A stretch of 64,000 nucleotides of DNA from assembly GCA_003149635.1 (NCBI GenBank), contig QCWI01000011.1:62001-126000 (forward strand), written 5' to 3'. This stretch comes from Fluviicola sp. XM-24bin1. GTDB lineage: Bacteria > Bacteroidota > Bacteroidia > Flavobacteriales_D > Crocinitomicaceae. Of the stretch, positions 17,210 through 59,268 are shown piece by piece. The position numbers and the translations under genes are program-made. The stretch's first letter is position 1, and each line of letters begins with the position of its first letter. Under the pieces are notes generated by a model, which made no database searches, had not been told where the DNA came from, and worked only from the letters and a program-made list of their open reading frames with translations.

Positions 17210-17310
17210 AAGAGAAAAGACGAAAAGATGAAAGAGAAAAGATAGGTCTAGAGGAGGATTGTAAATGCGCACAGGTCTTTTGTCTTTGTTCTTTTATCTT
17301 TCGTCTCAGC
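17210..17310. repeat. paired 7-bp-period arrays forming an inverted repeat
   Basis: Left array from 17210: AAGAGAA, AAGACGA, one extra A, AAGATGA, AAGAGAA, AAGATAG. Right array from 17276: TCTTTTG, TCTTTGT, TCTTTTA, TCTTTCG, in exact 7-bp phase. The arrays are complementary (AAAGAnn against TCTTTnn), so about 35 nt on each side could pair around a ~28-nt loop. They lie between two divergent genes and so are upstream of both. The rest of this 268-nt gap shows nothing else except likely weak promoters. Confidence 0.65.
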
Positions 17311-17385
17311 CGTCAACACTCAATTGTGGAATGAATTTCGCTGTATGGCGTATCAACAAGAGGTTTAATTCGTTACTTCGAATAG

Positions 17386-18288
17386 ATGAAATGGCACGTA
17401 ACACTCATATTTCTTCTATTGTTTGTAGGAGTTCGGTTTGAAGCTAAGGCTCAGAATCCGGAATTCGACAAACTAGAAATGCTTTTCGATCAACGGCACT
17501 ACAAAAAGGTGTACCGAAGATCAAGAAGGTTAATGGACAAGCCGGAATACGACTTCTCCTTGCTTCCGAAGTATTATAAAAGTTTGAGTGCCTTACAATT
17601 GTCTCAAAATGAGCATTGGTTGTTGCGTCATCCGCATGCTCTGGAAGATGCCAAAGAACTGTTTCTTGAGATTAAGCGTGACGAGGATTCCGAAAAACTA
17701 TTCGCTTCTCACAAGTACGAATTGACTTGGGTGAAGAATGAATTGGTGACTTGGGCGGCAGATCTAAAACGACGCGGAAAGAAAGATGAGTTCGAATTGG
17801 TGCAAGAAATCATAGACGTCCTCTTTGAAAATATTGATGATTTGGATGACATTCCAGATGCATCCACCGTTGAGAATCCCGATACAACTGTAGTTGCGAA
17901 TCCAGATTTTCGAGATGAGATCATTATTACCGCGAAGAAACAATTGGGAACGCCATACGTCTGGGCGGGAAGTTCACCCGGCGGATTCGATTGCAGTGGA
18001 TTTACGAGCTACGTGATGAAGCAAAATGGAAAGAGTTTGCCACGCAGAGCTGTAGATCAGTACGAATCGTCTAAAAAAGTGAAGGCCAAGAATGTCCAAA
18101 AAGGCGATCTCGTCTTCTTCGATAACGGTTCCGGAATATCGCATGTAGGCATTGTGATCTCTGAAAAAGGTGAGCCACTGACAATGATTCACAGTGCTTC
18201 CAGCAAAGGGATTGTCATCACGGACGTCACAAAGAGTGATTACTGGACGAAGCGTTTATACGGGTTCGGAACTTACGTGACCGACTAG
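17386..18288 (+). CDS. NlpC/P60 (C40) peptidoglycan hydrolase
   Basis: A 300-aa exported protein with a signal peptide ending near KAQN (~residue 24). Residues ~25-150 are a helical, charged domain without a recognised family. The C-terminal ~120 residues form an NlpC/P60 domain: catalytic Cys in FDCSGFTSYV (~residue 202), His in SHVGIVI (~251) and a second His in MIHSASSKGI (~268), the expected Cys-His-His order. It should cleave D-Glu-diamino-acid bonds in peptidoglycan stems. No SH3b domain is seen. The stop overlaps the convergent membrane-protein gene by 4 bp. Confidence 0.9.
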   Translation: MKWHVTLIFLLLFVGVRFEAKAQNPEFDKLEMLFDQRHYKKVYRRSRRLMDKPEYDFSLLPKYYKSLSALQLSQNEHWLLRHPHALEDAKELFLEIKRDEDSEKLFASHKYELTWVKNELVTWAADLKRRGKKDEFELVQEIIDVLFENIDDLDDIPDASTVENPDTTVVANPDFRDEIIITAKKQLGTPYVWAGSSPGGFDCSGFTSYVMKQNGKSLPRRAVDQYESSKKVKAKNVQKGDLVFFDNGSGISHVGIVISEKGEPLTMIHSASSKGIVITDVTKSDYWTKRLYGFGTYVTD

Positions 18289-18809
18289 TGTTGCTTTTCA
18301 GGCAGGAAGAGCTGAATTATGGAAAATAGCCCTGTTCCCAACAAACTGATCCAAGCGATCATGTAGTAATCGCGACTGGAGGTTTCTAGCAGCAACGGAA
18401 TTAAAAATAGGATAGAGGTGATTCCCAAGAATCCTTTTGCAAGCCAAGCGCTCCAATTATTTCGATTCAATCGTAGGAAATAAGCTTGTCCGCACAGTAA
18501 TACAAACGCTGCTATTGTTGGTTTCCAGAATGCCATTACGTTTTTCGGACTTACAAACATCAGTAACAATCCAATGAGAGTGAGAATGAACAGACCAAAT
18601 GAAATCCAATTGATTTTATTTCTACCGATCCAATGGATGCGGTAAACTCCAAGCAAAACGGCCAAGGATAAGTAGAAAATGCCTCCAATTATCGCTTTAC
18701 CGAAGTTCTCATCTGTAACATCCAGATTATACAATTGAACAAGCCCTAATACTAGAGTAGCCACAAAAATTAACGTTAACGCGTGTTTGGAAGCATTTAA
18801 AATCTTCAT
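18285..18809 (-). CDS. six-span membrane protein of unknown function
   Basis: A 174-aa protein with about six hydrophobic segments (first LTLIFVATLVLGLVQLYNL, last IAWISLLGTGLFSIIQLFL), short loops and no recognisable motif. The start is the ATG at 18809; the TTG further upstream lies inside a promoter box. The -7 box ends only 4 nt before the ATG, so the transcript is predicted to begin at or very near the start codon. No function is offered. Confidence 0.7.
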   Translation of the reverse strand: MKILNASKHALTLIFVATLVLGLVQLYNLDVTDENFGKAIIGGIFYLSLAVLLGVYRIHWIGRNKINWISFGLFILTLIGLLLMFVSPKNVMAFWKPTIAAFVLLCGQAYFLRLNRNNWSAWLAKGFLGITSILFLIPLLLETSSRDYYMIAWISLLGTGLFSIIQLFLPEKQH

Positions 18810-18813
18810 GACA

Positions 18814-18821
18814 CAAATGTA
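18814..18821 (-). promoter_or_regulatory. Bacteroidota -7 promoter box (TACATTTG), 4 nt before ATG
   Basis: The minus strand reads TACATTTG, then TGTC, then the ATG at 18809. With normal spacing from -7 box to start point the mRNA would have almost no leader. It directly follows the clpB terminator. Confidence 0.55.
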
Positions 18822-18862
18822 CAAAAGAAAGGCAGCCGGTCTATTCGAAGACTCAGCTGCCT
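18822..18862 (-). terminator. intrinsic terminator of clpB
   Basis: AGGCAGC and GCTGCCT (18856-18862 and 18830-18836) form the stem, with a further partly paired region (GTCT/AGAC) below the loop TTCGAA. On the minus strand it is followed by TTCTTTT. Confidence 0.7.
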
Positions 18863-18868
18863 AACTTT

Positions 18869-18889
18869 CTCTCTACTACTTACTACTAA
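18869..18889. repeat. short 7-bp-period array after clpB
   Basis: In plus orientation CTCTCTA, CTACTTA, CTACTAA follow in 7-bp phase (minus strand: TTAGTAG, TAAGTAG, TAGAGAG). The array lies between the clpB stop codon (18893-18895) and its terminator. It resembles the other heptad arrays but is short. Confidence 0.4.
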
Positions 18890-18892
18890 AAC

Positions 18893-21514
18893 TTAAATTC
18901 CTATTTCTTCCTCTTCATTTATGGGGCGGCGAAAAACCATCTTCCCATCGAAGATGTCCAAAACGACATTTTGTGAAGTATCAATTTGATTTCCGAGGAT
19001 TGCTTTGGATAATTCATTCATCACCATCTTCTGAATCACTCGTTTTACCGGTCGCGCTCCAAAGAACGGGTCGTAGCCTGATTCTGCGATGAATGTCATT
19101 GCTTCGTCTTTCACGACCAAATTGATTTGTTGTTCTTTCAACCGATCAGCGAGAGCTTTCATTTGAATCGAAACGATTTCGTTGATATTCTGTCGTGTTA
19201 ACGGCTGGAACATGATCGTTTCATCAATTCTATTCAAGAATTCAGGTCGAATCGTTTGTTTCAACAATTCCATAACATCGGTTTTTGCTTGCTCGGAAGC
19301 TCTGTCGAACTCACTTTCTTTGATTCCTTCGAAGCGCTCGTGGATGACATGCGAACCAAGATTGGACGTCATAATGATGATCGTATTCTTGAAATTCACG
19401 GTGCGTCCTTTGTTGTCCGTCAATCGGCCATCATCTAGCACTTGCAACAAGATGTTAAATACATCTGGATGCGCTTTTTCGATTTCATCCAATAAGATGA
19501 TGGAGTATGGACGTCGGCGAACGGCTTCGGTCAACTGGCCTCCTTCATCATATCCGACGTATCCAGGAGGTGCTCCCACCAATCTACTTACAGCGTGCTT
19601 CTCCTGGTACTCACTCATATCGATGCGCGTCATGGCATTTTCATCGTTAAAGAGATAGTCCGCTAGGGATTTCGCTAATTCTGTCTTTCCAACTCCCGTT
19701 GTTCCAAGGAAGATGAACGATCCAATCGGGCGTTTTCCGTCTTGAAGTCCTGCGCGAGAGCGTCTTACGGCATCAGAAATTGCTTCGATAGCTTCTTTCT
19801 GACCTACAACACGCTTGCTAAGTTGATCTTCCAGTTTTAGCAATTTCTCGCGTTCACTTTCAATCATCTTGTTCACCGGGATTCCCGTCCATTTGGAAAC
19901 TACTTCAGCAATTTCCTCGGCATCGACCTCTTCCTTGATCATTTTGGAATCAGCCTGCATTTCTAACAATTTCGCTTTTGCTTCTTCCAAATCGCGCTCG
20001 GTTTCTTTGATCCGTCCGTATCGCAACTCTGCCACTTTTCCGAAATCTCCAGCTCTTTCTGCTTGATCTGCTTCTAATTTCAAGTTGTCGATTTCTTCTT
20101 TGAATGCTTGAATCTTGTCCACGACTTCATGCTCCGATTGCCATTTGGCTCTTAGCGCATCGCGCTCTGAACTCAAATTCGCTAATTCTTCCTCCAGCGA
20201 TTGCATCTTCACTTTATCTTTCTCACGTTTGATGGCCTCGCGCTCAATCTCCAATTGCATGATTTTACGTTCAATCTCGTCCAGTTCTTCAGGTTTTGAG
20301 TTAATTTCCATGCGCAATTTGGACGCCGCTTCGTCAATCAAATCAATGGCTTTGTCCGGCAAATGACGCTCCGTAATATATCTTTGCGATAACTCTACGG
20401 CATTTATAATAGCCGCGTCTTTGATCAAAACTTTATGATGATTCTCGTACTTCTCTTTAATTCCTCGGAGAATCGAAATAGCATCTTCTGTTGAAGGCTC
20501 ATCCACCAAAACTGTTTGGAATCGACGTACCAACGCTTTGTCCTTCTCAAAATACTTTTGATACTCGTTCAGAGTTGTTGCTCCGACTGCACGCAGCTCT
20601 CCACGGGCGAGGGCGGGCTTCAGTATGTTTGCTGCATCCATTGCTCCTTCACCGCTACCTCCGGCTCCTACGAGCGTGTGAATTTCATCAATAAAGAGAA
20701 TGATTTCTCCATCGGCTTTAATCACTTCTTTTACAACGGATTTCAAGCGCTCCTCGAACTCTCCTTTGTATTTAGCTCCGGCAATTAGGGCGCCCATATC
20801 TAAAGAGTACACGATCTTAGATTTTAGATTTTCTGGTACATCTCCTTCAATAATTCGGTGTGCAATCCCTTCGGCAATGGCTGTTTTACCAACACCTGGC
20901 TCACCAATAAGAATTGGATTGTTCTTGGTTCTTCGCGTGAGAATCTGCAAAACACGTCGAATCTCATCATCACGGCCAATCACAGGATCTAATTTTCCCG
21001 CTTTTGCCATTTCATTCAAGTTGTTGGCGTATTTGTCCAATGATTGATACGTTCCGTCCGTACTATTCGATTGCACCGTTTCGCCATTACGTAGATTCAT
21101 GATTTCCTCCTTTAATTTCTTTTTTGTGATTCCATTATCCTTCAAAAGGGTACCTGCCGCATCTGTCGCTGAAAGCATGGCATAAAACAATACTTCGATG
21201 GATACATACGTATCGTTGAATGTTTTTATTTCAGTGAAAGCATTGTTCAATACTTGGTTCATTTGATTGGACATATACATTTGTCCTCCAGATACTTTAG
21301 GGTATGTTTGCACGATTCGATCAGATGCATTTTTCAGCATGTCCGAATCCACATTCATGGCATTCAATAAGAAGGGAGTAACATCTTTATCCACTTCCAT
21401 GATACCAGAAAGTACGTGCCCAGTCTCTATTGTTTGATGACCGTTTTGTGTCGCCAATTGCTGCGCCGCTTGCAAAGCTTCTTGCGTTCGAATTGTCAAT
21501 TTATTTTGGTCCAT
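18893..21514 (-). CDS. clpB: ATP-dependent disaggregase ClpB
   Basis: An 873-aa Hsp100 AAA+ chaperone that, with the DnaK system, extracts polypeptides from aggregates. Domains in order: Clp N-domain (1-~145), first AAA+ with Walker A GEPGVGKT (~residue 206) and Walker [10 protein letters not shown], coiled-coil middle domain (~410-520, long Glu/Lys/Arg helix [20 protein letters not shown]), second AAA+ with Walker A GTTGVGKT (~606) and [12 protein letters not shown], then the C-terminal small domain. The middle domain marks ClpB and not ClpA or ClpC. It is monocistronic. The divergent gap carries two TGTCAAAA-type motifs that may be stress-control sites. Confidence 0.97.
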
Positions 21515-21541
21515 TGTTCATTGTTTTGTTCGACTGGTTTT

Positions 21542-21625
21542 TGTCAAAAGGCACGCCATTTCATTTTTGAATGATTTTTTCGGAAAAAATGGCATTAACC
21601 TTTAATTCGACCTGTCAAAATGTCC
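21542..21625 (-). promoter_or_regulatory. two TGTCAAAA motifs in the clpB upstream region
   Basis: TGTCAAAAGGCAC (21542-21554) and TGTCAAAATGTCC (21613-21625) are two related 13-mers between clpB and the divergent glucosaminidase gene; read as TGTCAnnnTGtCA-like elements they could be binding sites of a stress regulator. The assignment is inferred only from recurrence and from the heat-shock gene next to them. Confidence 0.3.
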
Positions 21626-21732
21626 GTTATTCGTGGTTTTTCGAAGTTTTCAACAATAAAATGATAGTTATTAACAATTTTATGTAACTCAATTACGATA
21701 TACACGTAGTAGAGAACACAAACACAACAAAC

Positions 21733-22629
21733 ATGAATAAGAATTTAGTACTGATATCAGCGCTTTTACTCAGTTCTAGTTCCTTCGCTGCGAAGATTAC
21801 TAGAGCTGAATACGTTGATACATGGAAAGAAACGGCGATCCAGCAAATGATGGATCACAACATCCCGGCGAGTATTACTTTAGCGCAAGGGATTCTTGAA
21901 AGTGGAAGTGGAAATTCCACATTGGCCGTTGAAGGAAACAATCATTTTGGAATTAAGTGCCACGGTTGGACGGGGAAGAAAATGTACATGGATGACGATG
22001 CCAAAGGCGAATGCTTTCGTGTATATAAAAACGCAAGTGAGTCGTATCAAGATCACTCAACGTTTCTAACTACGTACAGTCGATATGCCTTTTTATTCGA
22101 ATACGATGTTACCGATTATAAATCCTGGGCAAAAGGATTGAAGAAAGCAGGGTATGCAACAAGTCCTAAGTATCCGGAAAAGCTAATCAAAATAATTGAG
22201 GAGCTTGATTTGGATCAATACGACACGGGAATGATGCTGGAAGCACCGCAATTGATCGTAAACAATGAATCTCATTCTAACAAACATTCTGTAATGCTTC
22301 ATTCTAATAAGGTGAAGTATGTTACCGTCAAAGAAGGAGATACATTCTATAAGATTTCGAAAGAATTTGGTTTGACCTTGAAACAATTGTACCGATACAA
22401 CGACTTTGGTAGTTCAAAAGATATGTTGGAAGCGGGCGATATCGTTTACATTCAGCCAAAGAAACGATCTAATATTTTTAAAAGAACGAGAACAACGCTT
22501 ACGGAAGATATGACCGTAGCTGAGATTTCACAGAAATTCGCGATGAATGCTAAGACAGTCATGCGATTAAATGGTTTCACCAGTCCTGATGATGTCATCG
22601 AAAAGGGTGAAAAGATAACCCTCAGATAG
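21733..22629 (+). CDS. GH73 glucosaminidase with two LysM domains
   Basis: A 298-aa secreted peptidoglycan hydrolase. Signal peptide: NLVLISALLLSSSSFAA (~residue 19). The glucosaminidase (GH73) domain spans ~25-165 with ASITLAQGILESGSGNSTLA, in which the Glu of LESGSG is the expected catalytic acid, and NNHFGIKCHGW. Two C-terminal LysM domains follow (~195-243, YVTVKEGDTFYKISKEFGLT; ~255-298), which bind GlcNAc chains. The product fits a cell-separation or wall-remodelling role. It has its own upstream region divergent from clpB and is followed by a strong terminator. Confidence 0.92.
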   Translation: MNKNLVLISALLLSSSSFAAKITRAEYVDTWKETAIQQMMDHNIPASITLAQGILESGSGNSTLAVEGNNHFGIKCHGWTGKKMYMDDDAKGECFRVYKNASESYQDHSTFLTTYSRYAFLFEYDVTDYKSWAKGLKKAGYATSPKYPEKLIKIIEELDLDQYDTGMMLEAPQLIVNNESHSNKHSVMLHSNKVKYVTVKEGDTFYKISKEFGLTLKQLYRYNDFGSSKDMLEAGDIVYIQPKKRSNIFKRTRTTLTEDMTVAEISQKFAMNAKTVMRLNGFTSPDDVIEKGEKITLR

Positions 22630-22671
22630 GACAGAGTCCGAATTGAGGTTTTTTAGTTTGTTGTTGTTTGT

Positions 22672-22699
22672 GAAAGGCTTTGGGAAACCAAGGCCTTTC
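22672..22699 (+). terminator. intrinsic terminator after the glucosaminidase gene
   Basis: GAAAGGCTTTGG pairs with CCAAGGCCTTTC around GAAA with one bulge, followed by TTGTATTCTTATT. The T-tract is weak but the stem is strong. Confidence 0.65.
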
Positions 22700-22870
22700 T
22701 TGTATTCTTATTACTCTATTATGTGACTATAGTATTGTTAAGTCTTTATGGTCTACGCAAGAATCAAGGGAGATAGCAGTTCAAGCAATAAGTTGAAATG
22801 AATTGTTATGGTTTGAATCTTAATTCTTAATTTGCGTCTTATACTGTGACTTAAACCCCAATAATAAGGT

Positions 22871-24409
22871 ATGAAGCCATCTACGGAACTCTTTAAACTC
22901 GTGAAGTCGCTAACGAAATCTGAGAAGCGATTTTTCAAACTTTCCTCATCACTGCAATCCGGAGAAAAGAATTATTTGAAAATCTTCGATTACATCGAAA
23001 AGCAATCTGTGTATGATGAAGCTGCATTGAAGAAAGAATTTGAAGGAGAAACGTTTATCAAGCATCTGCCTTCAGAGAAGAATCATCTTTATAAGTTGAT
23101 TTTGAAGAGTTTACGAGCGTATTATAGTGAGCAGAGTATCAGTAGTACACTGACACAGGAAATTAAAAACGTAGAAATCCTTTATAACAAAGCACTATAT
23201 AAAGAGTGCGAGAAGTTTGTTGGTAGAGCCAAAGAAATAGCAAAACGTCACGAGAAATTCTACTATTGGTTCGAATTGATTAGTTGGGAAAAGAAGTTGT
23301 TGGAATCGGCGTATGAATCAGGGGAGTTCTCAACGGATTTGGATAAATTGGTAGAGGAAGAGGAGATGGTAATTGCCAAACTTCGAAATCTTGCTGAATA
23401 CACTGTAATTTACAGTAAAATCAACCAGATTTTCCGTTCTGGAGGATTTACTCGAAATGAACGCGAGCGTAAGGTGGTAGAGGATATTGCGGATTATCAC
23501 CTGATTAAAGGAAAGAATACGGCGCTCAGCACCAAGGCGGCGTCCATCTGTTATTACATCAAAGGACTTTGTGCTGCTACGAACCGTAATTATGAGGACA
23601 GTTTCCAATTCTTCAATAGAACTCGCGAAATTTTGGACAACAATCCGGATATCAGGCTAGATGCTGGTCAGCGCTACGTAAATACATTGTTTCATTTACT
23701 CCGCTGCCACACGGATTTAGGTGAATTTGACGAGGCAAAGGCATTAATTGAAGACATCCGTAGTTTACAAGGAAAGAAAGCCTTTAAATCCGTGGATATT
23801 GCCGTTCGAATCGTTTCGAATACGTACAATCAAGAATTGGTACTGCTGCATTCTTTGGGGGATTTCGACGGAAGTGTAGCATTGATCCCAACCATTGAAG
23901 ATCTGCAAGAAACTTACGAGGGTAAGATCAGTAAAGAAATGGAAGTTTTGCTTACCTACAACAAAGCATACAGTCATTTCGGAGTAGGCGATTACAAAAA
24001 AGCACTGCAATATCTGAATGAAGTATTGAACGATAACGAGCAGAATCTGCGCAGAGATATTTACAGCTTCTCGCGTCTATTCAATATTGTAATTCATTAT
24101 GAATTAGAAAATTACGACTTCTTGGAATACGTTGTGAAATCGACAAACAGATACTTGAGCAAGCAAGATCGTGATTATCAAATTGAGAACGTGTGCATCA
24201 AGCACATTCGTAAACTGGCCAAAACTATTGATGGTGTAAATCGTTTGGAGATTTTTGAGAAAATGGACGAGGAAATCACGGAATTACTCAAAGATCATAA
24301 CGAACGCGTGGTATTGGAGTACTTTGATATCGCTGCGTGGGTGAAAAGCAAATTGAATAAAACTCCTTTCGATCAAACCATTCGCGATGGATTGACGCAG
24401 AAAGCGTAG
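22871..24409 (+). CDS. conserved-looking helical-repeat protein of unknown function
   Basis: A 512-aa soluble protein with no signal peptide or membrane segment. It is rich in Leu, Lys and Glu. Tetratricopeptide-like helices can be seen, for example EMEVLLTYNKAYSHFGVGDY followed by KKALQYLNEVLNDN (~residues 355-390). The start KPSTELFKLVKSLTKSEKRF resembles proteins I have seen annotated as hypothetical in Flavobacteriales; no function is known to me. It is probably a scaffold. It stands alone; heptad repeats separate it from proS. Confidence 0.75.
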   Translation: MKPSTELFKLVKSLTKSEKRFFKLSSSLQSGEKNYLKIFDYIEKQSVYDEAALKKEFEGETFIKHLPSEKNHLYKLILKSLRAYYSEQSISSTLTQEIKNVEILYNKALYKECEKFVGRAKEIAKRHEKFYYWFELISWEKKLLESAYESGEFSTDLDKLVEEEEMVIAKLRNLAEYTVIYSKINQIFRSGGFTRNERERKVVEDIADYHLIKGKNTALSTKAASICYYIKGLCAATNRNYEDSFQFFNRTREILDNNPDIRLDAGQRYVNTLFHLLRCHTDLGEFDEAKALIEDIRSLQGKKAFKSVDIAVRIVSNTYNQELVLLHSLGDFDGSVALIPTIEDLQETYEGKISKEMEVLLTYNKAYSHFGVGDYKKALQYLNEVLNDNEQNLRRDIYSFSRLFNIVIHYELENYDFLEYVVKSTNRYLSKQDRDYQIENVCIKHIRKLAKTIDGVNRLEIFEKMDEEITELLKDHNERVVLEYFDIAAWVKSKLNKTPFDQTIRDGLTQKA

Positions 24410-24429
24410 GGAAGGGAAGTACACTGTGG

Positions 24430-24489
24430 GTAAAAAGTAGAAGGTAGAAAGTAAAAAGTATCCTTCCACCTTTAACCTTCCGCTTTCTG
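24430..24489. repeat. paired 7-bp-period arrays between the helical-repeat gene and proS
   Basis: Left array: GTAAAAA, GTAGAAG, GTAGAAA, GTAAAAA (24430-24457) in perfect phase. Right array: CCTTCCA, CCTTTAA, CCTTCCG, CTTTCTG (24462-24489) in perfect phase. The two are roughly complementary and separated by only 4 nt, so they can fold into one long imperfect hairpin. The proS -33 TTG begins 2 nt after the right array. Confidence 0.7.
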
Positions 24490-24490
24490 C

Positions 24491-24519
24491 TTGTCGCTAG
24501 CTCCTTCTTCTTATATTTG
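24491..24519 (+). promoter_or_regulatory. proS promoter (TTG-N18-TATATTTG)
   Basis: TTG at 24491-24493 and TATATTTG at 24512-24519 are separated by 18 nt, a good Bacteroidota house-keeping promoter. The ATG of proS is 28 nt downstream. Confidence 0.7.
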
Positions 24520-24547
24520 CTGTCTTTACTAAAAATTCAGATTTCAA

Positions 24548-26820: not shown

Positions 26821-26892
26821 GGCCCATTCGTCTAGTGGTTAGGACGCCAGGTTTTCATCCTGGAAACAGGAGTTCGATTCTCCTATGGGCTG
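26821..26892 (+). tRNA. tRNA-Glu (anticodon TTC), copy 1
   Basis: 72 nt. Acceptor stem GGCCCAT/ATGGGCT (with a G-U first pair), anticodon stem CCAGG/CCTGG enclosing TTTTCAT, giving anticodon TTC for GAA/GAG; T arm AGGAG-TTCGATT-CTCCT. The discriminator base is G and CCA is not encoded. It is identical to copy 2. Confidence 0.97.
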
Positions 26893-26961
26893 CGAAAGCA
26901 GAGCGAGAGTGATGTTTGAGTGCGAGGGTATCCCTCAAAACTCCACCCTCACACTGTAAAT
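26893..26961 (+). other. spacer between tRNA-Glu copies with nested hairpins
   Basis: The 69-nt spacer contains GAGGGTATCCCTC (26924-26936), a small perfect hairpin, and a wider imperfect inverted repeat: GAGTGCGAGGGT (26918-26929) against ACCCTCACACTG (26945-26956), 10 of 12 complementary. Such structures could guide processing of the tandem tRNA precursor. Confidence 0.45.
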
Positions 26962-36848: not shown

Positions 36849-37399
36849 ATTTCACCGTAGGACAAAAGATTACCTTTTTGCACGAGCAAGGAGAAGGAAC
36901 GATACTGGAAGTATTGGGTGTTGGTAAATTCAGAATAGAAGACGATCACGGCTTCGAAAGGATTTGTCTGAAGTCAGAGATTGCACCCGTATTTGGAACG
37001 GATTATAAAATCAATGAGGCAGCTATTGCAGGACTGAACGAGGACGAAACCTTCTCAACTTCCAGAAAAGCACAACAAACAAAGCATGTAGGAACGGGCA
37101 GAGCGGGCTTCGAAATTTGGGAAATCGATTTGCATATTGAATCCTTGACGGAATCTCACACTGGGTGGACGAACACTGATATCGTTCGCAAACAATTGAT
37201 GGAATTGCGATCCTTTGTAAATCGTGCCAGAGCGAAACGCATACGCAAGTTAATTGTCATTCACGGCGTTGGAACAGGCGTTTTGAAGGAAGAAGTGCGA
37301 GAGTTTTTCCGCGATCAGGAAGGAGTTGAATGCTATGATGCGAGTTATCAGGAGTATGGGAAGGGGGCGACAGCTGTGGAGATTCGATATAATATATGA
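36845..37399 (+). CDS. Smr-domain protein
   Basis: A 184-aa protein; start set at ATG 36845, overlapping the M50 stop (ATGA). Residues ~1-50 form a small beta-barrel-like domain (VGQKITFLHEQGEGTILEVL), resembling the KOW/Tudor-like part of MutS2-related proteins. The C-terminal ~85 residues are an Smr domain: EIDLHIESL (LDxH-type motif, ~residue 97) and VIHGVGTGVLKEEV (HGxGxGxL motif, ~residue 139). Smr domains bind or nick nucleic acids; the exact role is open. Its stop codon runs straight into a heptad array. Confidence 0.88.
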   Translation: MNFTVGQKITFLHEQGEGTILEVLGVGKFRIEDDHGFERICLKSEIAPVFGTDYKINEAAIAGLNEDETFSTSRKAQQTKHVGTGRAGFEIWEIDLHIESLTESHTGWTNTDIVRKQLMELRSFVNRARAKRIRKLIVIHGVGTGVLKEEVREFFRDQEGVECYDASYQEYGKGATAVEIRYNI

Positions 37400-37447
37400 A
37401 AAGTGAAATGTGTCAAGCGATTAGTGAATAGTGAGAAGTGAAAAGGG
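37399..37447. repeat. seven perfect 7-bp-period units starting in the Smr stop codon
   Basis: Units in strict phase: AAAAGTG, AAATGTG, TCAAGCG, ATTAGTG, AATAGTG, AGAAGTG, AAAAGGG. Positions 5-7 read GTG in five units, GCG in one and GGG in one, while the first positions vary. The first A is the last base of the TGA stop of the Smr gene, and the array ends 4 nt before the convergent membrane-glycosyltransferase gene. No complementary right arm is present here. Confidence 0.7.
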
Positions 37448-51969: not shown

Positions 51970-51973
51970 CCTC

Positions 51974-52297: not shown

Positions 52298-52312
52298 ATA
52301 ATGCTGTCTAAA

Positions 52313-52320: not shown

Positions 52321-52488
52321 GCAATAAAAACGGTGCTTTTTATGTTGAATATTTCCCCAATATTCATGCCTCGGGTAAATTACTGCCACTCTGTCAGAAC
52401 AAAGTTTGGAAAAGTTTTTGCTTCTCCCATGTTTATAACTAATGTTAACAGTGCGAAACTCCATTGGCCTGTTTTCTAAATTTAGACT

Positions 52489-55473
52489 ATGAAATCCAAA
52501 ATCTCCACCCTTATACTCTTAGGGATAGCGACATCGCTAACCTTCATCCTATGGGCTTCATTGGCCGAAACGAATACTCCTGTAAAGCACGTAAGTCATA
52601 TTGAACCGACACCGGAACTGGAAGAATCGATCATTCCCAAAGAAGTTCCTTATACTGACAATGTGTCGAATGCTTGGGTTGATGAAACATTGAGCAAACT
52701 TTCCTTAAGAGAGAAAATCGCGCAGTTCTTTATGGTGGCTGTTTATCCGAAACAAAACGAGGTACACTTTCAACATATCGATTCTTTGGTATCGAAGCAC
52801 GGTATTGGTGGAATCATTGTTTTTCAAGGGGATCGCGATCAAGCGAAAAAAGCTATCAAGCGCTATCAGGGAAAGGCGAGTATTCCTTTGTTAACAGCCA
52901 TGGATGCAGAATGGGGGCCAAGCATGCGATTGTCCAATGAGCCAAGATTTCCTTACGCAATTACGATAGGTGCGGCGAACGATCCGGCACTTTCACAACA
53001 CATCGGAGCCTTGATGGGGCAGGAATGTAGAGATTTGGGCGTTCATTTGAATTTTGCCCCTGTAGCCGATGTGAATAGCAATCCTAAGAATCCAGTAATT
53101 GGTTATCGATCTTTTGGTGAAAATCCAAGAAATGTTGGAAAACATGTGGCTGCGACCGTAATAGGAATGGAAGGACAAAGTGTACTCACAAGTATTAAAC
53201 ATTTCCCTGGACATGGAGATACGGATACCGATTCCCACAAAGAACTTCCATTGGTGAATAATAGCTATTTGCAGATTCGCGCGATTGATTTCGTGCCATT
53301 TCAGGATGGGATCGATGCTGGAGCAAGTACTGTCATGATTGCGCATTTAAACGTTCCAGCATTGGATTCAACGGGAACGCCATCCAGTTTGTCAAAACCT
53401 ATTATTCATGGGTATTTGAAAGGAGAGCTAGGATATAATGGACTGATCGTAAGTGATGCGCTTGGCATGAAAGGTGTATCCAATAAATACGGCAAAACCG
53501 AGGTTGTTGTGAAGGCTTTTGAAGCCGGATGTGACATCTTATTGATGCCGGGAAGCGTTGTAAAAGCAATCGACGCTATTAAAGCGAAAGTCAATGCTGG
53601 TGAGATTTCTGAGGAAGAAATCAACATTCGCTGTAAGCGTGTTCTAGCGGCAAAACACAAGTCGATTGTAGCTCCAAAACCTATGAAGGAATACACGGAA
53701 TCTGAGCGTGATTTGTACCGAAAATTGATATTCGAAAAGGCGATTACCGTTTTAAAGAATGATAATGATGTGTTGCCAATCAATCGTTTCGATAAGAAGA
53801 TTGCTGTGGTTACCGTAGGTAAATTCACGGGAAGCGTTCGACCGGCGATGGATAAAGTCACCAAAGTGGATCATTTCTCGTACAAAACAGGCTCTGAGGC
53901 GCTTTCTAAGTTTGGTCCTAAAATCGGGCAGTACGACATGGTAATTTCTACGCTACACGCGGGATCCATGCGACCTTCCGGAAACTACAAACTCCCAACA
54001 GGATGGAAGTCTTGGTTGACCAAGCTTGGAACGGCCAAGGAAAGTGCATTGGCATTGTTCGGAAGTCCGCTGGCTTTGAAAGACGTGAAGGAAATTGATG
54101 CTATTGATGCTGTGGCAATCGGTTATGAAAACAATTCATTGATGCAAGATCGCATGGGGCAATTCCTAATGGGGACATTTGGTTCTTCCGGTAAATTGCC
54201 AGTAACTGTGGATAGTCGTTTTAAAGTAGGGCATGGTCTTGAAGTGAAGTGGGGCGGACGTTTGAAAGATTCACAACCCGAAGAATTGGGCATCAATCCT
54301 GAGAAATTGAAGCAAATCGACTCAATTGCCATGTTAGGAGTTCGTAATGGTGCATATCCCGGATGTCAGGTGGCAGTGGCCATTGAAGGTAAGTTGATCT
54401 ATGAAAAATCATATGGTCACCATACCTACAGCAAAAAACAAGAAGTTCAAAATACGGATGTGTACGACATCGCTTCGATCACCAAGATTGCAGCTTCTAC
54501 GTTGTCAATTATGCATTTGAACTCGGAAGATAAATTCAACCTCGCAGGAACGCTAGGAGATTACATCCCTGAAATCACTGGTGACAGTCCGTTCAACAAT
54601 ATCGTTTTACGTCAGATGCTTTCGCACCAAGCAGGATTAACCCCTTGGATTCCGTTTTACACGAAGACCTTGGAGGAAGACAAATCCTTATCCCCGAAAT
54701 TCTACGCCAAAGCACCGTCTGATTCGTTCAACGTGAAAGTGTCAGACAATCTGTGGATTCGAGGAGATTACGAAGATGTGATGTACCAAACCATGCTGAA
54801 TAGCACTTTGGGGCCAAAGCGCTACAAGTATTCAGATGTCGGATATTATTTCATTAAGAAAATCGTAGAGAAGCAATCAGGCCAATCCTTGGATCAGTTT
54901 GTTTTGTCGGAATTCTATGCCCCAATGGGACTGCAATACATGCGCTACAATCCGTTGGAGCACTTCGAGAAATCGCAGATTACACCTACAGAAAATGATA
55001 AGATCTTCCGTAAGCAGCAAATTCACGGATACGTTCATGATCAAGGTGCAGCAATGGTCGGAGGTGTAGGTGGACATGCGGGATTGTTCTCTAACGCAGG
55101 AGATCTGGCTAGCTTGATGCAATTGTTCTTGAACAACGGTTATTACGGCCAAAACTACATCAAAGAGCAAGTATTGAAGGAGTACACCGATTGTCAGTTT
55201 TGCAGCACGAACCGACGCGGCGCTGGATTTGACAAGCCTGTTCGCGAAGGAAAGGGCGGCCCAAGTTCAAATAAAGTGTCATTGAAAAGTTTTGGTCACA
55301 CTGGATTTACTGGTACAATCGCTTGGGCAGATCCAGAGAATCAAGTGAATTATGTATTCCTTTCGAATCGTGTTTACCAAGATGCGGAGAATTGGAAATT
55401 GGTTAGAATGGACATTCGTACCAAAATTCAGGACGTGATTTACGAAGCGCTCGTTGAAGCGAAGCTTAAATAA
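52489..55473 (+). CDS. fusion of GH3 (NagZ-like) hydrolase and serine beta-lactamase-type domain
   Basis: A 994-aa exported protein. Signal-anchor: STLILLGIATSLTFILWASL (~residues 5-24). GH3 domain ~60-390: KHFPGHGDTDTDSH (~238-251, His of the NagZ catalytic loop) and GLIVSDALGMKGV (~318-330, nucleophile Asp). A Rossmann-like GH3 C-terminal part follows (~410-600). Residues ~605-990 are a beta-lactamase/DD-peptidase-like domain with SITK (~663), YSDVGY and HTGFTG (~937). Such fusions are known in Bacteroidota. Probable job: remove GlcNAc from muropeptides and hydrolyse or bind a peptide/ester in the periplasm for wall recycling. Monocistronic. Confidence 0.92.
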   Translation: MKSKISTLILLGIATSLTFILWASLAETNTPVKHVSHIEPTPELEESIIPKEVPYTDNVSNAWVDETLSKLSLREKIAQFFMVAVYPKQNEVHFQHIDSLVSKHGIGGIIVFQGDRDQAKKAIKRYQGKASIPLLTAMDAEWGPSMRLSNEPRFPYAITIGAANDPALSQHIGALMGQECRDLGVHLNFAPVADVNSNPKNPVIGYRSFGENPRNVGKHVAATVIGMEGQSVLTSIKHFPGHGDTDTDSHKELPLVNNSYLQIRAIDFVPFQDGIDAGASTVMIAHLNVPALDSTGTPSSLSKPIIHGYLKGELGYNGLIVSDALGMKGVSNKYGKTEVVVKAFEAGCDILLMPGSVVKAIDAIKAKVNAGEISEEEINIRCKRVLAAKHKSIVAPKPMKEYTESERDLYRKLIFEKAITVLKNDNDVLPINRFDKKIAVVTVGKFTGSVRPAMDKVTKVDHFSYKTGSEALSKFGPKIGQYDMVISTLHAGSMRPSGNYKLPTGWKSWLTKLGTAKESALALFGSPLALKDVKEIDAIDAVAIGYENNSLMQDRMGQFLMGTFGSSGKLPVTVDSRFKVGHGLEVKWGGRLKDSQPEELGINPEKLKQIDSIAMLGVRNGAYPGCQVAVAIEGKLIYEKSYGHHTYSKKQEVQNTDVYDIASITKIAASTLSIMHLNSEDKFNLAGTLGDYIPEITGDSPFNNIVLRQMLSHQAGLTPWIPFYTKTLEEDKSLSPKFYAKAPSDSFNVKVSDNLWIRGDYEDVMYQTMLNSTLGPKRYKYSDVGYYFIKKIVEKQSGQSLDQFVLSEFYAPMGLQYMRYNPLEHFEKSQITPTENDKIFRKQQIHGYVHDQGAAMVGGVGGHAGLFSNAGDLASLMQLFLNNGYYGQNYIKEQVLKEYTDCQFCSTNRRGAGFDKPVREGKGGPSSNKVSLKSFGHTGFTGTIAWADPENQVNYVFLSNRVYQDAENWKLVRMDIRTKIQDVIYEALVEAKLK

Positions 55474-55543
55474 GAAATAATGAGTCAAGAATATTGAATA
55501 GGGAAGCACGCTTTATTCAATATTCCTTATTTCTTATTCATTA
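55471..55543. repeat. paired 7-bp-period arrays beginning at the GH3 fusion stop codon
   Basis: Left array in strict phase from the stop codon itself: TAAGAAA, TAATGAG, TCAAGAA, TATTGAA, TAGGGAA (55471-55505). Right array in strict phase: TTCAATA, TTCCTTA, TTTCTTA, TTCATTA (55516-55543). Reversed, the right array has the same TAAnGAA consensus, so the two form an imperfect hairpin with a 10-nt loop. It may double as a terminator. Confidence 0.7.
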
Positions 55544-55653
55544 TTTCAATTTAAGATTTAAAGAATACTCGAAACTCACGCAAGCAGTGCAGTCCTGTAT
55601 CCTAGAATAATGTATACTTTTACGAGGAATTAGGCGAAATAAACGTGAAGTTG

Positions 55654-56781
55654 ATGAAAATAGGAATTGTATTGTATCCAACCTATGGGGGAAGTGGAGT
55701 AGTAGCAACAGAGTTGGGGAAATCACTTGCCAAGAAAGGACATGAAGTTCATTTCATCACGTACTCGCAGCCGGTTCGATTGAGCGGTTTTCGCAAGAAC
55801 GTATATTACCACGAAGTAGCCGTTTCTGATTACCCGCTTTTCGAATACACGCCATACGAGACAGTTCTAGCCAGTAAAATGGTAGATGTGGTAAAGCGTG
55901 AATCGCTCGAACTTTTGCACGTACATTACGCTATTCCGCATGCATCAGCTGCTTACATGGCAAAAATGATTTTGCGTCAGCAAGGATTCGAAATTCCTTT
56001 TGTAACTACATTGCACGGAACGGACATTACACTCGTTGGGAAAGATCCTTCGTTTGAACCGGTAATTACCTTCTGTCTAAACGAATCCGATGCCGTAACG
56101 GCCGTTTCGGAGAGTTTAAAGAAGGATACGTACAAGCATTTCAACACCAGTCGTGAGATTCAGGTGATTCCCAATTTCATTCATACCAAGCGAATGGCGA
56201 TTGAAGATATAGATGATATCCGAGCTCGTTATGCCAATCCAGGTGAGCCTCTATTGTGTCACATTTCCAATTTCCGCAAGGTAAAGAGGGTAGAAGACGT
56301 ATTGAAAATATTTGCTCGTGTGAATAAGCGCATTCCATCGAAAATTTTGATGGTGGGTGACGGGCCAGAGCGCTATAAACTAGAGGAATTGTGTACGATG
56401 TTGGGATTGTGCTCTCGCGTCAAGTTTATTGGAAAAGTACGCGATACACAAGCCGTTTTGGAAATTTCAGACCTCTTCTTATTGCCTTCTGAAACGGAAA
56501 GCTTTGGTTTGGCAGCGCTAGAAGCCATGGCTGTTGGTGTACCAGTTATTTCTTCAAATACAGGGGGAATTCCTGAAGTGAACGTACATGGAGTTACTGG
56601 GTTCCTTTCTGACGTTGGTGATGTTGATGACATGGCCAAAAATGCTTTGCATATCCTTGGTGATAAGGATCGATTGCACGAATTCAAAATGAACGCACGT
56701 AAGCACTCGGAAAAGTTCAATCTTGAGAAGGTTGTAGCTCAATACGAAGAAGTGTACAACAGCTTGTTAGTTACAAACTAA
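55654..56781 (+). CDS. bshA: N-acetyl-alpha-D-glucosaminyl L-malate synthase
   Basis: A 375-aa GT4 enzyme, first step of bacillithiol synthesis: it joins GlcNAc from UDP-GlcNAc to L-malate. Start is ATG 55654 (KIGIVLYPTYGGSGVVATEL), the BshA hallmark; the GTG nine bases upstream is less likely. Other motifs: HVHYAIPHASAAYMA, TTLHGTDITLVGKDPS and PSETESFGLAALEAMAVGVP (E-x7-E of GT4, ~272-291). It implies that this organism makes bacillithiol; bshB and bshC are not in the window. It overlaps the convergent membrane protein gene by 4 bp. Confidence 0.95.
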   Translation: MKIGIVLYPTYGGSGVVATELGKSLAKKGHEVHFITYSQPVRLSGFRKNVYYHEVAVSDYPLFEYTPYETVLASKMVDVVKRESLELLHVHYAIPHASAAYMAKMILRQQGFEIPFVTTLHGTDITLVGKDPSFEPVITFCLNESDAVTAVSESLKKDTYKHFNTSREIQVIPNFIHTKRMAIEDIDDIRARYANPGEPLLCHISNFRKVKRVEDVLKIFARVNKRIPSKILMVGDGPERYKLEELCTMLGLCSRVKFIGKVRDTQAVLEISDLFLLPSETESFGLAALEAMAVGVPVISSNTGGIPEVNVHGVTGFLSDVGDVDDMAKNALHILGDKDRLHEFKMNARKHSEKFNLEKVVAQYEEVYNSLLVTN

Positions 56782-58301
56782 TCTATGGCTCGGTAGAGCA
56801 CGATACTACCATTATCTCCCAATTCTTTAAATCTCGTTTTGAAACGATCGTATAGATAAGGGCGTTCGTCGATGTGAGCAACTACGTATTGTCCTTTCGG
56901 AAATCTTGGCACCAATTCTCCTGCGTTTGGCATTTGACGAATTGTCCCATTATGATTTAGATGCTGTAATACTTCCTGACCGATTCCCCAATTCTTTGGG
57001 ATGGCTACGGCTAAAGGATCAAACGGCTTTACACCATGTTTTTTCAATAATTCATCGCCTCCTCGAAATGTAAATGCCAGGTTCTTTCCTTGGCTCGTTC
57101 TGTTTAGTTCATTCCGAACGTTTTGCGTCCAATTCCCTTCACTGAGCATTATCAATAGCAACAGGAGCAGTCCACCAACTGACATTTTAGGGTATCGATA
57201 CATCCAATCAATGTTCAATCGATCCACAATAAAAATGGCTATCAGCACAAAAGGAAGCAATAACAATTTCAGAAAGTAGACATCGCTGTAGATCACTTGA
57301 TATGGATTCAATATTGCCACTCCAACCGCAAGTACAGCAAATAATGAAAAACGAAGGAAAGGATCATTCTTCCAAGCGACAGTCACTCTCTTTCGGAAGG
57401 CTTGATAGCCTAGAACCAATAAGACAATGGCTCCAACAACTGTTTGGAAAACCGTGAAATAGTGTAGTTTCCATGAATCCCAAATGGAATTAGAGACGGA
57501 TTGATCATACACCCAATCTTGGAGGAATCCTGCAAATTGACTTCCATATTCCTCTTTCTGACTATAAAAGAAGATCAAGGAGAGAAGAACAGGCAAATAG
57601 ATCAAGCTGATAAATAGGATTTTTCGCAAATCAACGTACTTACTAAAAACAGGTCGATTGACAATTAGAACTGTCGCACCTATCATGAATAGAACAAGAT
57701 CAGTAGAAGTGAGGACTCCGACAAGCATCCAAAGTAATGCCGAATATCCCTTTTTTAACTCATTAGAAATATGGAATTGATACAAATAGTACGTTCCAAT
57801 GATTACGCAACTTAACGCTGGAATCTCTGGCAAGAAATTGCTTTGATAGAAGGCAAAAATGGGAGCAGACGCCATAAAAACAAAGATAAATAGCGACTTT
57901 CCAATATGATTGGTGACGCGCAATGCAAGCAAATACAAGAAGAATAATCCGACAAATCCCCACAGAATATTGTACCATTGAACAACTTCGGTAAGTTGCG
58001 CACCCGATAAGGAATGAATCACTGCTGGAACAAACGCGTGAATAGGGAAGTGCGCCGCTGTAATTCGCGAAGAACTAGATTGATTCACATCGTACTCACC
58101 ATTTTGATAATTGTACGCTGGCGTTTCCGCGTGAAAGAAATCGAAACCATTGTTTACAAAGCCTTGAGCAATAGCGAGATTCGCCCCTTGTTCTCCATGA
58201 GCCGTCCCTCCTTGATTGGCCCCGAGCACCGCAGAGTGCAATCCAAAAAACAAGGCCAGAGCTACAACACAAAAAGCAAGAAATGCATAGCGCTTTGTCA
58301 T
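56778..58301 (-). CDS. polytopic membrane protein, possible GT-C glycosyltransferase
   Basis: A 507-aa protein with about eleven membrane segments and short loops. The first segment (FLAFCVVALALFFGLHSAV) is followed by a loop with GGTAHGEQGANLAIAQGF. The layout is of GT-C type, but the DD/DE motif is not obvious and the identity is open. A C-terminal soluble part of ~90 residues follows. It shares the gap at 58302-58445 with a heptad array. Confidence 0.6.
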   Translation of the reverse strand: MTKRYAFLAFCVVALALFFGLHSAVLGANQGGTAHGEQGANLAIAQGFVNNGFDFFHAETPAYNYQNGEYDVNQSSSSRITAAHFPIHAFVPAVIHSLSGAQLTEVVQWYNILWGFVGLFFLYLLALRVTNHIGKSLFIFVFMASAPIFAFYQSNFLPEIPALSCVIIGTYYLYQFHISNELKKGYSALLWMLVGVLTSTDLVLFMIGATVLIVNRPVFSKYVDLRKILFISLIYLPVLLSLIFFYSQKEEYGSQFAGFLQDWVYDQSVSNSIWDSWKLHYFTVFQTVVGAIVLLVLGYQAFRKRVTVAWKNDPFLRFSLFAVLAVGVAILNPYQVIYSDVYFLKLLLLPFVLIAIFIVDRLNIDWMYRYPKMSVGGLLLLLLIMLSEGNWTQNVRNELNRTSQGKNLAFTFRGGDELLKKHGVKPFDPLAVAIPKNWGIGQEVLQHLNHNGTIRQMPNAGELVPRFPKGQYVVAHIDERPYLYDRFKTRFKELGDNGSIVLYRAID

Positions 58302-58329
58302 GGTGATAAAGGTAGAAATTTAGTTGATT

Positions 58330-58421
58330 GGTAAAAGGTAAAAGGTAAAAGGTAAAAGGTAAAAGGTAGAAGGTAGAAGGTAGAGGGTATAAAGTCTTTG
58401 CCTTCTACTTTCTACCTTCTG
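58330..58421. repeat. heptad tandem repeat (GGTAAAA x5) with complementary right array
   Basis: Left array in strict phase: five GGTAAAA, two GGTAGAA, GGTAGAG, GGTATAA (58330-58392). Right array: CCTTCTA, CTTTCTA, CCTTCTG (58401-58421). The right array is the complement of the GTAGAAR form, giving a hairpin with a short loop. The five identical units suggest recent slippage. It lies downstream of the SIMPL gene (minus strand), starting about 24 nt after its stop. Confidence 0.8.
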
Positions 58422-58445
58422 CAACTTCCTCTTATCGTCTTTATT

Positions 58446-59159
58446 CTATTTTTCCTTGATCGAAAACTTCACATAAATCGAAGCTTGTAAGCGGATTTTC
58501 TCAAAGCCTATCTCTGGCAAACCTCCTGTCACAACGCTTCCGCCTTCTTCTTCGGCGACGTAACTACGTTGAATGTTGTTTGCAAAACTATTGAAGTAAT
58601 AATTCGGATCATTCTCACGCACTTCAATCGCATTTCCCGTTTCTTCACCAATAGCGTTCAATAGATAATCGGCTTTCTCTTTAGCAGCTTTAATGGCATC
58701 GATACGCAGTTGTTTGCGCAATTCAACAATATCGGAACGCTCCGTCCTTGAGATGTAGGCATCCAAAATTTCCAGTTCATCCAACTTTGTGAAGACTTTG
58801 TTGACTTCTTCTGCTGTCCCCAATTTTAAAGTATAAGACTTTGTGGTAATCACTTCTTTTCTTCGAAAACGGATTTTTACATAATCGGATTCAGAATCTG
58901 AGAGCACCAAGTTTTCCAAGGAAAGTCCGATATCCTGCAATCCTTTCTTTAAACTAGCTTCTTGTTGTTCCACGGTGATTGTTTGCTTTCCTTCTTCACG
59001 CTCCCGAATCGTAATAGCCACGTAGATTTCATCCGGCATGATTTCTAATCTAGCAGTGCCCGTTACTTCAATGTGTGGTGTAGGTTCTTTCTCTTGGGCG
59101 ATAGTAGGAGTTATGGTACTCACGAATAGAATCGCTATCAATAATTTGAACATTTTCAT
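58446..59159 (-). CDS. SIMPL (DUF541) domain periplasmic protein
   Basis: A 237-aa exported protein with a signal peptide (LLIAILFVSTITPTIAQE, cut ~residue 21). The SIMPL domain covers ~28-235: ITVEQQEASLKKGLQDIGLS, then a central VELRKQLRIDAIKAAKEKAD (~148-167, the usual SIMPL motif of charged helix) and NAIGEETGNAIEV. SIMPL proteins form beta-rich oligomers in the envelope; role unknown (linked to stress in several bacteria). Its upstream box TATATTCG at 59186-59193 is a near-match promoter. Confidence 0.88.
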   Translation of the reverse strand: MKMFKLLIAILFVSTITPTIAQEKEPTPHIEVTGTARLEIMPDEIYVAITIREREEGKQTITVEQQEASLKKGLQDIGLSLENLVLSDSESDYVKIRFRRKEVITTKSYTLKLGTAEEVNKVFTKLDELEILDAYISRTERSDIVELRKQLRIDAIKAAKEKADYLLNAIGEETGNAIEVRENDPNYYFNSFANNIQRSYVAEEEGGSVVTGGLPEIGFEKIRLQASIYVKFSIKEK

Positions 59160-59224
59160 GTGATTGGTTTTTAGTGTTATAAGTTCGAATATATGGTTTA
59201 TACAGTTGCAGGCGAAATTCGTTT

Positions 59225-59268
59225 AAAGAGAAAAGATCGCTTTGCTCTTTCCGTCTTTCATCTCGCTA
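59225..59268. repeat. short paired 7-bp-period arrays upstream of SIMPL
   Basis: Left: AAAGAGA, AAAGATC (59225-59238). Right: CTTTGCT, CTTTCCG, one extra T, CTTTCAT (59240-59261). The arms are complementary in pattern (AAAGAnn against CTTTnnn) and match the array at 17210 in consensus. It lies between the thiolase terminator and the SIMPL promoter. Confidence 0.5.

What the first reader, a model, noticed from the sequence alone, without database searches (positions are those of the whole stretch)
17210..59268. Family of strictly 7-bp-periodic intergenic arrays, often paired as inverted repeats
At least six gaps (17210, 24430, 37399, 55471, 58330, 59225) and probably two more (14890, 18869) hold tandem but degenerate 7-mers that keep phase over 3-9 units while sequence varies. 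Each array has a private consensus (AAGAnnA, GTAGAAR, nnAAGTG, TAAnGAA, GGTAAAA), yet the design is common: purine-rich heptads, then complementary pyrimidine-rich heptads, able to fold into one long imperfect hairpin. Four begin at or inside the stop codon of the gene before (14890, 37399, 55471) or carry it (18869). One sits between divergent genes, so termination alone does not explain them. The period is seen directly; the common origin is inferred. The closest named analogues I know are the heptameric STRR repeats of cyanobacteria; I know no named family for this type.
Basis: partly seen in the sequence, partly recalled or inferred. Interest (0 to 1): 0.72.

Follow-up and report, generated by a model that had tools for sequence, protein, structure and literature searches.

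The report
Dispersed seven-base hairpins at gene ends
Between the genes of this Bacteroidota bacterium lie many short DNA hairpins built from seven-letter steps that often start right at the end of a gene; they look like dispersed repeat elements copied around the genome, and their strict yet degenerate seven-base pattern is unusual and unexplained.

Summary
The 7-bp periodicity is real: 49 lag-7 segments in 461 gaps (864 kb of this genome) against 3.9 shuffled. Five of eight named places hold it; 59225, 14890 and 18869 do not reach threshold. The 'private consensuses' are largely one design: G-Y-N-R-A-A-R. Three tandem units match 138 times genome-wide (reversed control 8); sisters G012 59 (11) and G020 34 (4); 29 of 34 genus genomes have 7 or fewer. 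In the sample, 69 matches lie in gaps, none in 759 kb of coding DNA. Purine arm precedes pyrimidine arm in 12 of 12 adjacent strict pairs. The main family aligns as a ~100-bp quasi-palindrome. Of 17 copies facing a stop codon, 14 begin within 10 nt of it or overlap it (8.0 expected); 9 of those 14 stops are TAG (genome 20%). One copy fills the paaA-paaB gap, 54-96 nt in five species but 1-32 nt in 24, so termination is not the general role. Best reading: REP/MITE-like hairpin elements with heptad stems, spreading by an unknown route. Closest parallel: the heptad P6b stem of Nostoc trnL introns.

The parts
24410..24510 (.). Main-family element: purine heptads 24430-24460 then pyrimidine heptads 24463-24490; begins directly after the TAG stop of the + gene 22871-24409
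   Evidence: lag-7 score 14; profile hit E 3.1e-19 (this copy is one of the 12 in the model); stop distance 0; orthologous array in G020, none in G012
58330..58438 (.). Main-family element with an expanded run of GGTAAAA units (58330-58394) and a pyrimidine arm 58401-58425; edge 7 nt from the TAG stop of the - gene 58446-59159
   Evidence: lag-7 score 48; fold z -8.7; profile hit (copy is in the model); shorter purine-pyrimidine hairpin in G012, different heptads in G020
55470..55548 (.). GAATAAN-type heptad hairpin overlapping the stop codon of the + gene that ends at 55473
   Evidence: lag-7 score 12.5; fold z -6.4; matches at E<=0.01: 48 own, 32 G020, 10 G012, 1 G013, 0 G032; REP-like palindromes at the orthologous place in G012 and G020 (by eye)
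17206..17318 (.). AAAGANG-type heptad hairpin between the divergent genes 15516-17117 (-) and 17386/17533-18288 (+)
   Evidence: lag-7 score 10 in the pyrimidine arm, 34-pair stem; fold z -2.7; differing segments in G012 and G020 at the same place
37397..37445 (+). AAGTGAN-type purine array alone, starting in the TGA stop of the + gene ending at 37399, in a convergent gap; no pyrimidine partner
   Evidence: TRF period 7, 7.0 copies; lag-7 score 10.5; no fold
59223..59263 (.). Weak AAAGANG-type arms beside a canonical terminator; below threshold, membership doubtful
   Evidence: no lag-7 segment at score >=8; fold z -0.3/-0.4

Best explanation
The arrays are the stems of a few families of short (about 50-130 bp), dispersed, non-coding, quasi-palindromic intergenic elements. 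In the main family a purine arm of about four heptads (consensus G-Y-N-R-A-A-R) is followed by a short AT-rich loop (often GGATAATT) and a pyrimidine arm of complementary heptads, sometimes ending CCAACNC. Shown: the period, the motif, the arm order, a multi-copy alignable family, abundance in three of 34 genus genomes, placement at stop codons, a run of expanded units, and sequence turnover at orthologous sites. Inferred: the elements multiplied in the recent ancestor of three sister species by an unidentified route (a transposase acting in trans, or ectopic templated copying); once in place they change by gain or loss of 7-bp units and by copying between arms or elements. They are tolerated or favoured at gene ends, where the edge often supplies the TAG stop and the transcript would carry an imperfect hairpin. 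They are not primarily transcription terminators.
For: Period. Motif beyond a column-permutation null (A5, A6, pyrimidine at position 2: 0 of 200 each); three tandem units at period 7: 41 against 0.0 shuffled, other periods 0-1; 69 in gaps and 0 in 759 kb coding; genome-wide 138 against 8 control, G012 59/11, G020 34/4 (overlapping matches, not loci). Arm order: 35 of 36 stems, 12 to 0 adjacent runs, 17 to 0 counted by eye in the partial own listing. Family: 12 copies align; the profile finds 22 loci in 864 kb at E<=1e-5, 11 of the 12 model copies among them, 4 in 150 kb of G012, 1 in 120 kb of G020, 0 in 202 kb of six other genus members, E. coli and shuffled DNA. Stop codons. Gain: the paaA-paaB gap (subunits named by NCBIfam) is 78, 76, 79, 54 and 96 nt in own, G012, G020, G013 and G032 but 1-32 nt in 24 other species; one of 30 loci lacked paaB. 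An extra pyrimidine segment at L043:16411 is in own only, not in G012 or G020.
Against: No target-site duplication was recognised by eye and no long shared terminal sequence was found: at most 4 of 63 flanks (runs of two or more units, genes included) share an 8-mer. Units just outside strict runs are not motif-like (A at position 5 in 0.41 before and 0.57 after). No Y1_Tnp homologue was found in own, G012 or G020. Positional conservation is only partial: purine-first stem retained in G012 in 4 of 10 and in G020 in 4 of 11 array gaps, against 0 of 22 and 3 of 26; by lag-7 score 3 of 10 and 4 of 11 against 2 of 22 and 5 of 26. Lag-7 enrichment with other motifs exists across Bacteroidota (41 against 10.2), which a general slippage process explains more simply. 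Arms match their own partner better than other arms (mean 11.1 against 7.2; 10 of 40 rank first), but stems were chosen for good pairing, so this is biased.
Confidence: 0.55

Rival explanations
1. Neutral replication slippage with a preferred 7-nt step, plus hairpin-templated repair, makes the arrays in place; purine-pyrimidine arms arise from fold-back copying and nothing is mobile or selected.
For: Heptads are reported as the most abundant long simple repeats in most genomes, with a polymerase-footprint idea (Mrazek 2007 as described in PMC4679880, Introduction read). Lag 7 is enriched across Bacteroidota with many different units. Unit-number changes are visible: GGTAAAA expansion at 58330 and apparently fewer units in L187, L188 and L192 upstream of glyS.
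Against: Array units vary at positions 2, 3, 4 and 7 while A5 and A6 stay fixed in phase beyond the column-permutation null; the motif is shared between unrelated loci and abundant in three of 34 genus genomes; copies align as one element with similar size and loop; consistent arm order.
Confidence: 0.27
2. They are bidirectional intrinsic terminators: an A/G-rich 5' arm and U/C-rich 3' arm release RNA polymerase from either side.
For: Arm order is the one a terminator needs on both strands; closeness to stop codons; strong folds at 55470 and 58330.
Against: A copy sits between paaA and paaB; by eye, heptads follow a canonical terminator at L036:12277, L043:16411, L038:1193 and L053:2925 and precede one at L043:6498; convergent against divergent gaps not significantly different, 10 of 71 against 8 of 101, P 0.21; 37399 does not fold.
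Confidence: 0.1
3. Sequence-specific regulatory sites: the heptad is bound by a protein or is part of promoters or leaders.
For: In the genus of G226 pyrimidine heptads lie just upstream of a TAnnTTTG-like box (consensus recalled) of glyS (named by NCBIfam); of 29 rows 13 are of one sequence type and 14 of the other, identity in the last 25 nt of the array 0.82 and 0.97 against 0.26-0.31 in the bins 100-150 nt upstream; the types were sorted by array sequence, which raises the within-type figures. Fixed A5 and A6.
Against: No placement preference of pyrimidine arrays near start codons in the own genome (7 of 24 within 30 nt against 5.6 expected); 10 of 45 array gaps are convergent and hold no called start.
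Confidence: 0.06

Closest known systems
Heptad P6b stem-loop of the Nostoc tRNA-Leu(UAA) group I intron (Class I TDNGATT, Class II NNTGAGT; PMC4476775, passages read)
   Same: Hairpin stem built from 7-nt units; structure kept while the unit class is replaced between lineages; 7-nt indels on one or both sides
   Different: One site inside an intron; here many dispersed intergenic sites, purine-pyrimidine arms, stop-codon placement
STRR heptanucleotide repeats of cyanobacteria (recalled; original papers not read)
   Same: Intergenic tandem degenerate heptads in several sequence classes
   Different: Different phylum and units; paired arms and stop-codon edges are not part of the definition as recalled
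TAACTGA direct repeats and heptamer assemblages (PMC4679880: abstract, Introduction and Bacteroidetes section read)
   Same: Intergenic heptads, also in five Bacteroidetes, with other heptamer repeats noted in G. forsetii, A. sublithincola and E. anophelis
   Different: One fixed unit, mostly just upstream of start codons in Maribeggiatoa; no hairpin design in the parts read
REP / CGTC- and GTAG-tagged palindromes (PMC3733652, passages read) and MITEs (recalled)
   Same: Short dispersed intergenic palindromes, some without a dedicated transposase
   Different: REP stems are 5-13 bp next to a fixed tag; here stems are long, heptad-built and degenerate, with no recognised TSD or parent IS
Long simple sequence repeats with 7-nt units (Mrazek 2007, as described in PMC4679880)
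   Same: Period 7, slippage-like unit expansion
   Different: Units here are degenerate at fixed positions and paired in inverted arms

Membership tests
Intrinsic terminator | hairpin directly followed by a T-run, at transcript ends | tested here: not met
   copy in the paaA-paaB gap; copies beyond canonical terminators (by eye); hairpin plus T-run found in 4 of 45 array gaps against 48 of 388 others of 40 bp or more (simple detector)
REP element mobilised by RAYT | palindrome with a GTAG- or CGTC-type 4-nt tag | tested here: inconclusive
   no 8-mer shared by more than 4 of 63 flanks, but a 4-nt tag would escape this, and GTAG occurs inside the heptads
REP element mobilised by RAYT | Y1-type transposase in the genome | tested here: not met
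   PF01797 not found in own, G012, G020; found in 13 of 34 genus genomes
MITE | terminal inverted repeats, target-site duplication, parent IS | tested here: inconclusive
   inverted arms present; no TSD recognised by eye in the aligned gaps; parent IS not searched
Cyanobacterial STRR | degenerate heptads in tandem between genes | tested here: met
Cyanobacterial STRR | the known STRR unit sequences, in cyanobacteria | not tested
   relatives are Crocinitomicaceae-like Bacteroidota; STRR units recalled only
Simple-repeat slippage array (LSSR) | near-identical units, variation spread over all positions | tested here: not met
   variation concentrated at positions 2, 3, 4, 7 with A5, A6 fixed beyond the column-permutation null; exceptions such as 58330 and L053:2969 are near-perfect runs

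The most novel reading that the evidence does not exclude
A family of mobile DNA hairpins whose stems follow a degenerate 7-bp code (G-Y-N-R-A-A-R on one arm, its complement on the other) that is recognised by a host or parasite factor with a 7-bp step, so that heptad phase and three letters per unit are selected while the rest drifts; elements insert at stop codons and replace one another at the same sites.
Probability: 0.15. Interest if true: 0.78.

Novelty: new variant of a known kind. Interest (0 to 1): 0.55.

Why it matters
Heptad repeats recur in unrelated bacteria (cyanobacteria, Beggiatoaceae, Bacteroidota) and I know of no accepted reason for the number seven. This genome gives an abundant set, concentrated in three sister species, with a consistent arm order, a position-specific code and orthologous sites where the sequence changed but the design stayed. 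That makes three ideas separable by experiment: polymerase slippage step, mobile hairpin, or recognition by a factor with a 7-bp step.

Tried and rejected
Terminator account: rejected as general (paaA-paaB copy, copies beyond terminators, no significant gap-type preference). Stop-cassette idea (period 7 puts stops in all three frames): stops are 98 on the purine strand against 17 on the other, but column permutation gives the same number (84.1 +- 5.1 against 86 observed in whole units), so composition explains it; in the strict units there is a small excess (98 of 158 units against 90.4 +- 3.2). RAYT mobilisation: no Y1_Tnp found in own, G012, G020. REP-like core CTTCGA..CTCA as the source of the hairpins: it occurs as loop of other hairpins and once between heptad arms (G020), but the aligned main-family copies do not carry it. 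Shared long termini: only GTTGG-like ends in part of the copies. Rfam at gathering scores: only the two tRNAs in the window. Literature: no paper listed there describes this family; nearest are those named. Limits: genes were called by my own scripts, not an annotation pipeline. 21 of the 40 own-genome stretches (420 kb) were placed to include hits, so densities from the 864 kb are too high for the main family; the C1+C2 subset was contiguous but its contigs and ends were also chosen with those hits in view; the whole-genome counts do not depend on the choice. Of the 12 stretches of G382, G220 and G126, 5 were placed on hits.
Full report
What was checked. The window lies in a 3.63-Mb assembly; ClpB relatives are Crocinitomicaceae-like Flavobacteriales, best named match 80% identical. 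I sampled 864 kb of this genome (window plus 40 stretches), called genes with a codon-usage script and analysed 461 gaps of 25 bp or more, 94.9 kb. Segments matching themselves at lag 7 (score >=8) number 49 against 3.9 in dinucleotide shuffles. Lags 4-6, 8-13 and 15 give 1-17; lag 14, a multiple, gives 25. Averaged over all gaps, lag 7 has the highest z (9.2), but lags 3, 4, 6, 9 and 21 are also raised (5.3-7.1). In the C1+C2 stretches segments are 19 against 1.9, in the window 7 against 0.1; in C1+C2 lags 8 (9/2.5), 9 (8/0.7) and 15 (15/1.3) also rise. E. coli has none at score >=9.

The eight places. 17210, 24430, 37399, 55471 and 58330 hold lag-7 arrays. 59225 stays below threshold and does not fold significantly. 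14890 and 18869 are ordinary hairpins without a lag-7 segment at the threshold. 37399 is a purine array alone.

One heptad rather than many. Read on the purine strand, the 44 arrays used share G1, a non-G at position 2, A5 and A6. Against arrays whose seven columns were permuted, A5 (0.90 against 0.77), A6 (0.88 against 0.60) and pyrimidine at position 2 (0.59 against 0.22) were reached in 0 of 200 trials; R7 in 12 and R4 in 102; G1 is chosen by the phasing rule and proves nothing. The tandem motif of three units occurs 41 times in gaps at period 7 against 0.0 in shuffles, and 0-1 times at periods 5, 6 and 8-12. With a trailing G there are 69 matches in gaps and none in 759 kb of coding DNA. 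Over 34 genus genomes the pattern counts are: own 138 (reversed control 8), G012 59 (11), G020 34 (4), G028 14 (2), G017 10 (3); the other 29 have 7 or fewer. These are overlapping matches, not loci.

Anatomy. Of 36 stems overlapping an array with score >=10, 35 have more purine in the 5' arm; 25 have at least 0.65 purine there and none has 0.35 or less. Best stems of array gaps (score >=14): 17 of 36 strongly purine-first, 0 reversed; of gaps without arrays 12 of 225 and 1; shuffles 0-1 and 1-4. Strict runs on opposite strands within 150 bp: 12 purine-first, 0 the other way. Twelve copies align as one element of about 100 bp: about four purine heptads, a loop such as GGATAATT, three to four pyrimidine heptads, then often CCAAC. 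A profile of these finds 22 loci in own at E<=1e-5, 11 of the 12 included, 4 in 150 kb of G012, 1 in 120 kb of G020, none in 202 kb of six other genus members, 1.35 Mb of 71 other named Bacteroidota loci, 147 kb of nine nearer named loci, 400 kb of the genus of G226, E. coli or shuffled DNA, and one weak hit in 240 kb of G382/G220/G126.

Placement. Of the 22, 20 lie in gaps between two called genes: 12 co-directional, 5 convergent, 3 divergent; none in a called gene. Of the 17 with a stop codon facing the element, 14 have their edge within 10 nt of it or overlapping; random placement in the same gaps gives 8.0, and no simulation of 20,000 reached 14. Nine of these 14 stops are TAG against 19.9% of 682 genes (P 0.0004). 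For all lag-7 purine arrays, 15 of 20 array/stop pairs lie within 30 nt against 8.5 expected; pyrimidine arrays near starts show no preference, 7 of 24 against 5.6.

Comparison between species. The 58302 gap has a short purine-pyrimidine hairpin in G012 and AAGA-type arms in G020. The 24410 array aligns without gaps to G020, with changes at the variable heptad positions that are not compensated across the arms (my reading). Between paaA and paaB (L043:10762; both named by NCBIfam) own, G012 and G020 have 78, 76 and 79 nt with purine-pyrimidine heptad hairpins of different units. G013 has 54 nt of ACTAGTN-like units and G032 96 nt; 24 other species have 1-32 nt, and one of 30 loci lacked paaB (an earlier script, misplaced the gap start). 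Scored automatically, a purine-first stem is present in G012 in 4 of 10 own-array gaps against 0 of 22 others, and in G020 in 4 of 11 against 3 of 26: conservation is real but partial. At 55474 two species carry a REP-like palindrome instead.

Wider distribution. Lag 7 is enriched in 71 other named Bacteroidota loci (41 against 10.2; lag 8 33 against 10.2) with many different units, and the GNNRAAR triple is absent there (0). A query from the 58330 array matches 18 of 247 phylum genomes at E <=0.001, own included. In the genus of G226 the pyrimidine heptads upstream of glyS are about as conserved as the start region: type 1 (13 rows) 0.82 and type 2 (14 rows) 0.97 identity in the last 25-nt bin, 0.84 and 0.86 in the next, against 0.26-0.31 in the bins 100-150 nt upstream; 2 of 29 rows fit neither type, one of 30 loci was dropped, and the types were sorted by array sequence. 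So heptad arrays can come under strong constraint.

Mechanism. The element reading explains common size, loop, motif, abundance in three sister species and arm order (a purine-pyrimidine hairpin looks the same after inversion). Slippage explains expansions such as 58330 and the phylum-wide period. I therefore hold that hairpin elements spread, and that a 7-bp slippage step remodels them in place. The route of spread is not known: PF01797 was not found in own, G012 and G020. Any effect on transcripts is inferred; RNA folds are strong at 55470 and 58330.

Known relatives. The Nostoc trnL P6b stem is the best parallel: heptad arms, replaced class by class with structure kept (PMC4476775, passages). 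MacGregor 2015 (PMC4679880, abstract and two sections) reports heptamer repeats in some Bacteroidetes and quotes the polymerase-footprint idea. A REP survey (PMC3733652, passages) lists palindromes in Bacteroidetes of another build. PMC6749651 and PMC4060949 were seen in passages only.

Noticed in passing
window 26890-26960: Spacer between the two tRNA-Glu genes is a purine-first, pyrimidine-second hairpin with a period near 6 (GAGTGN); G012 and G020 have a similar design with other sequence at the same place.
   Followed up: partly
L013:15781, L040:17921, L026:13447, L059:17967 and others: A 15-nt core CTTCGAGANCCTCAG serves as loop of many hairpins whose arms differ from site to site; a looser pattern has 37 matches in 864 kb, some within genes; in G020 it sits once between heptad arms.
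   Followed up: partly
L177-L206 (upstream of glyS): Pyrimidine heptads just upstream of a TAnnTTTG-like box occur in two sequence types among species of one genus.
   Followed up: partly
L218:5488, L223:3728, L225:295: A TCCGACTTCGGAC-type heptad array lies 14-18 nt before what looks like the same start codon in three species, with further copies nearby in G475.
   Followed up: no
L165:9376: Near-perfect array of GCGTCTA units directly after a called stop codon in Flagellimonas sp. 389, similar to the CTAGACG-type units seen in this genome.
   Followed up: no
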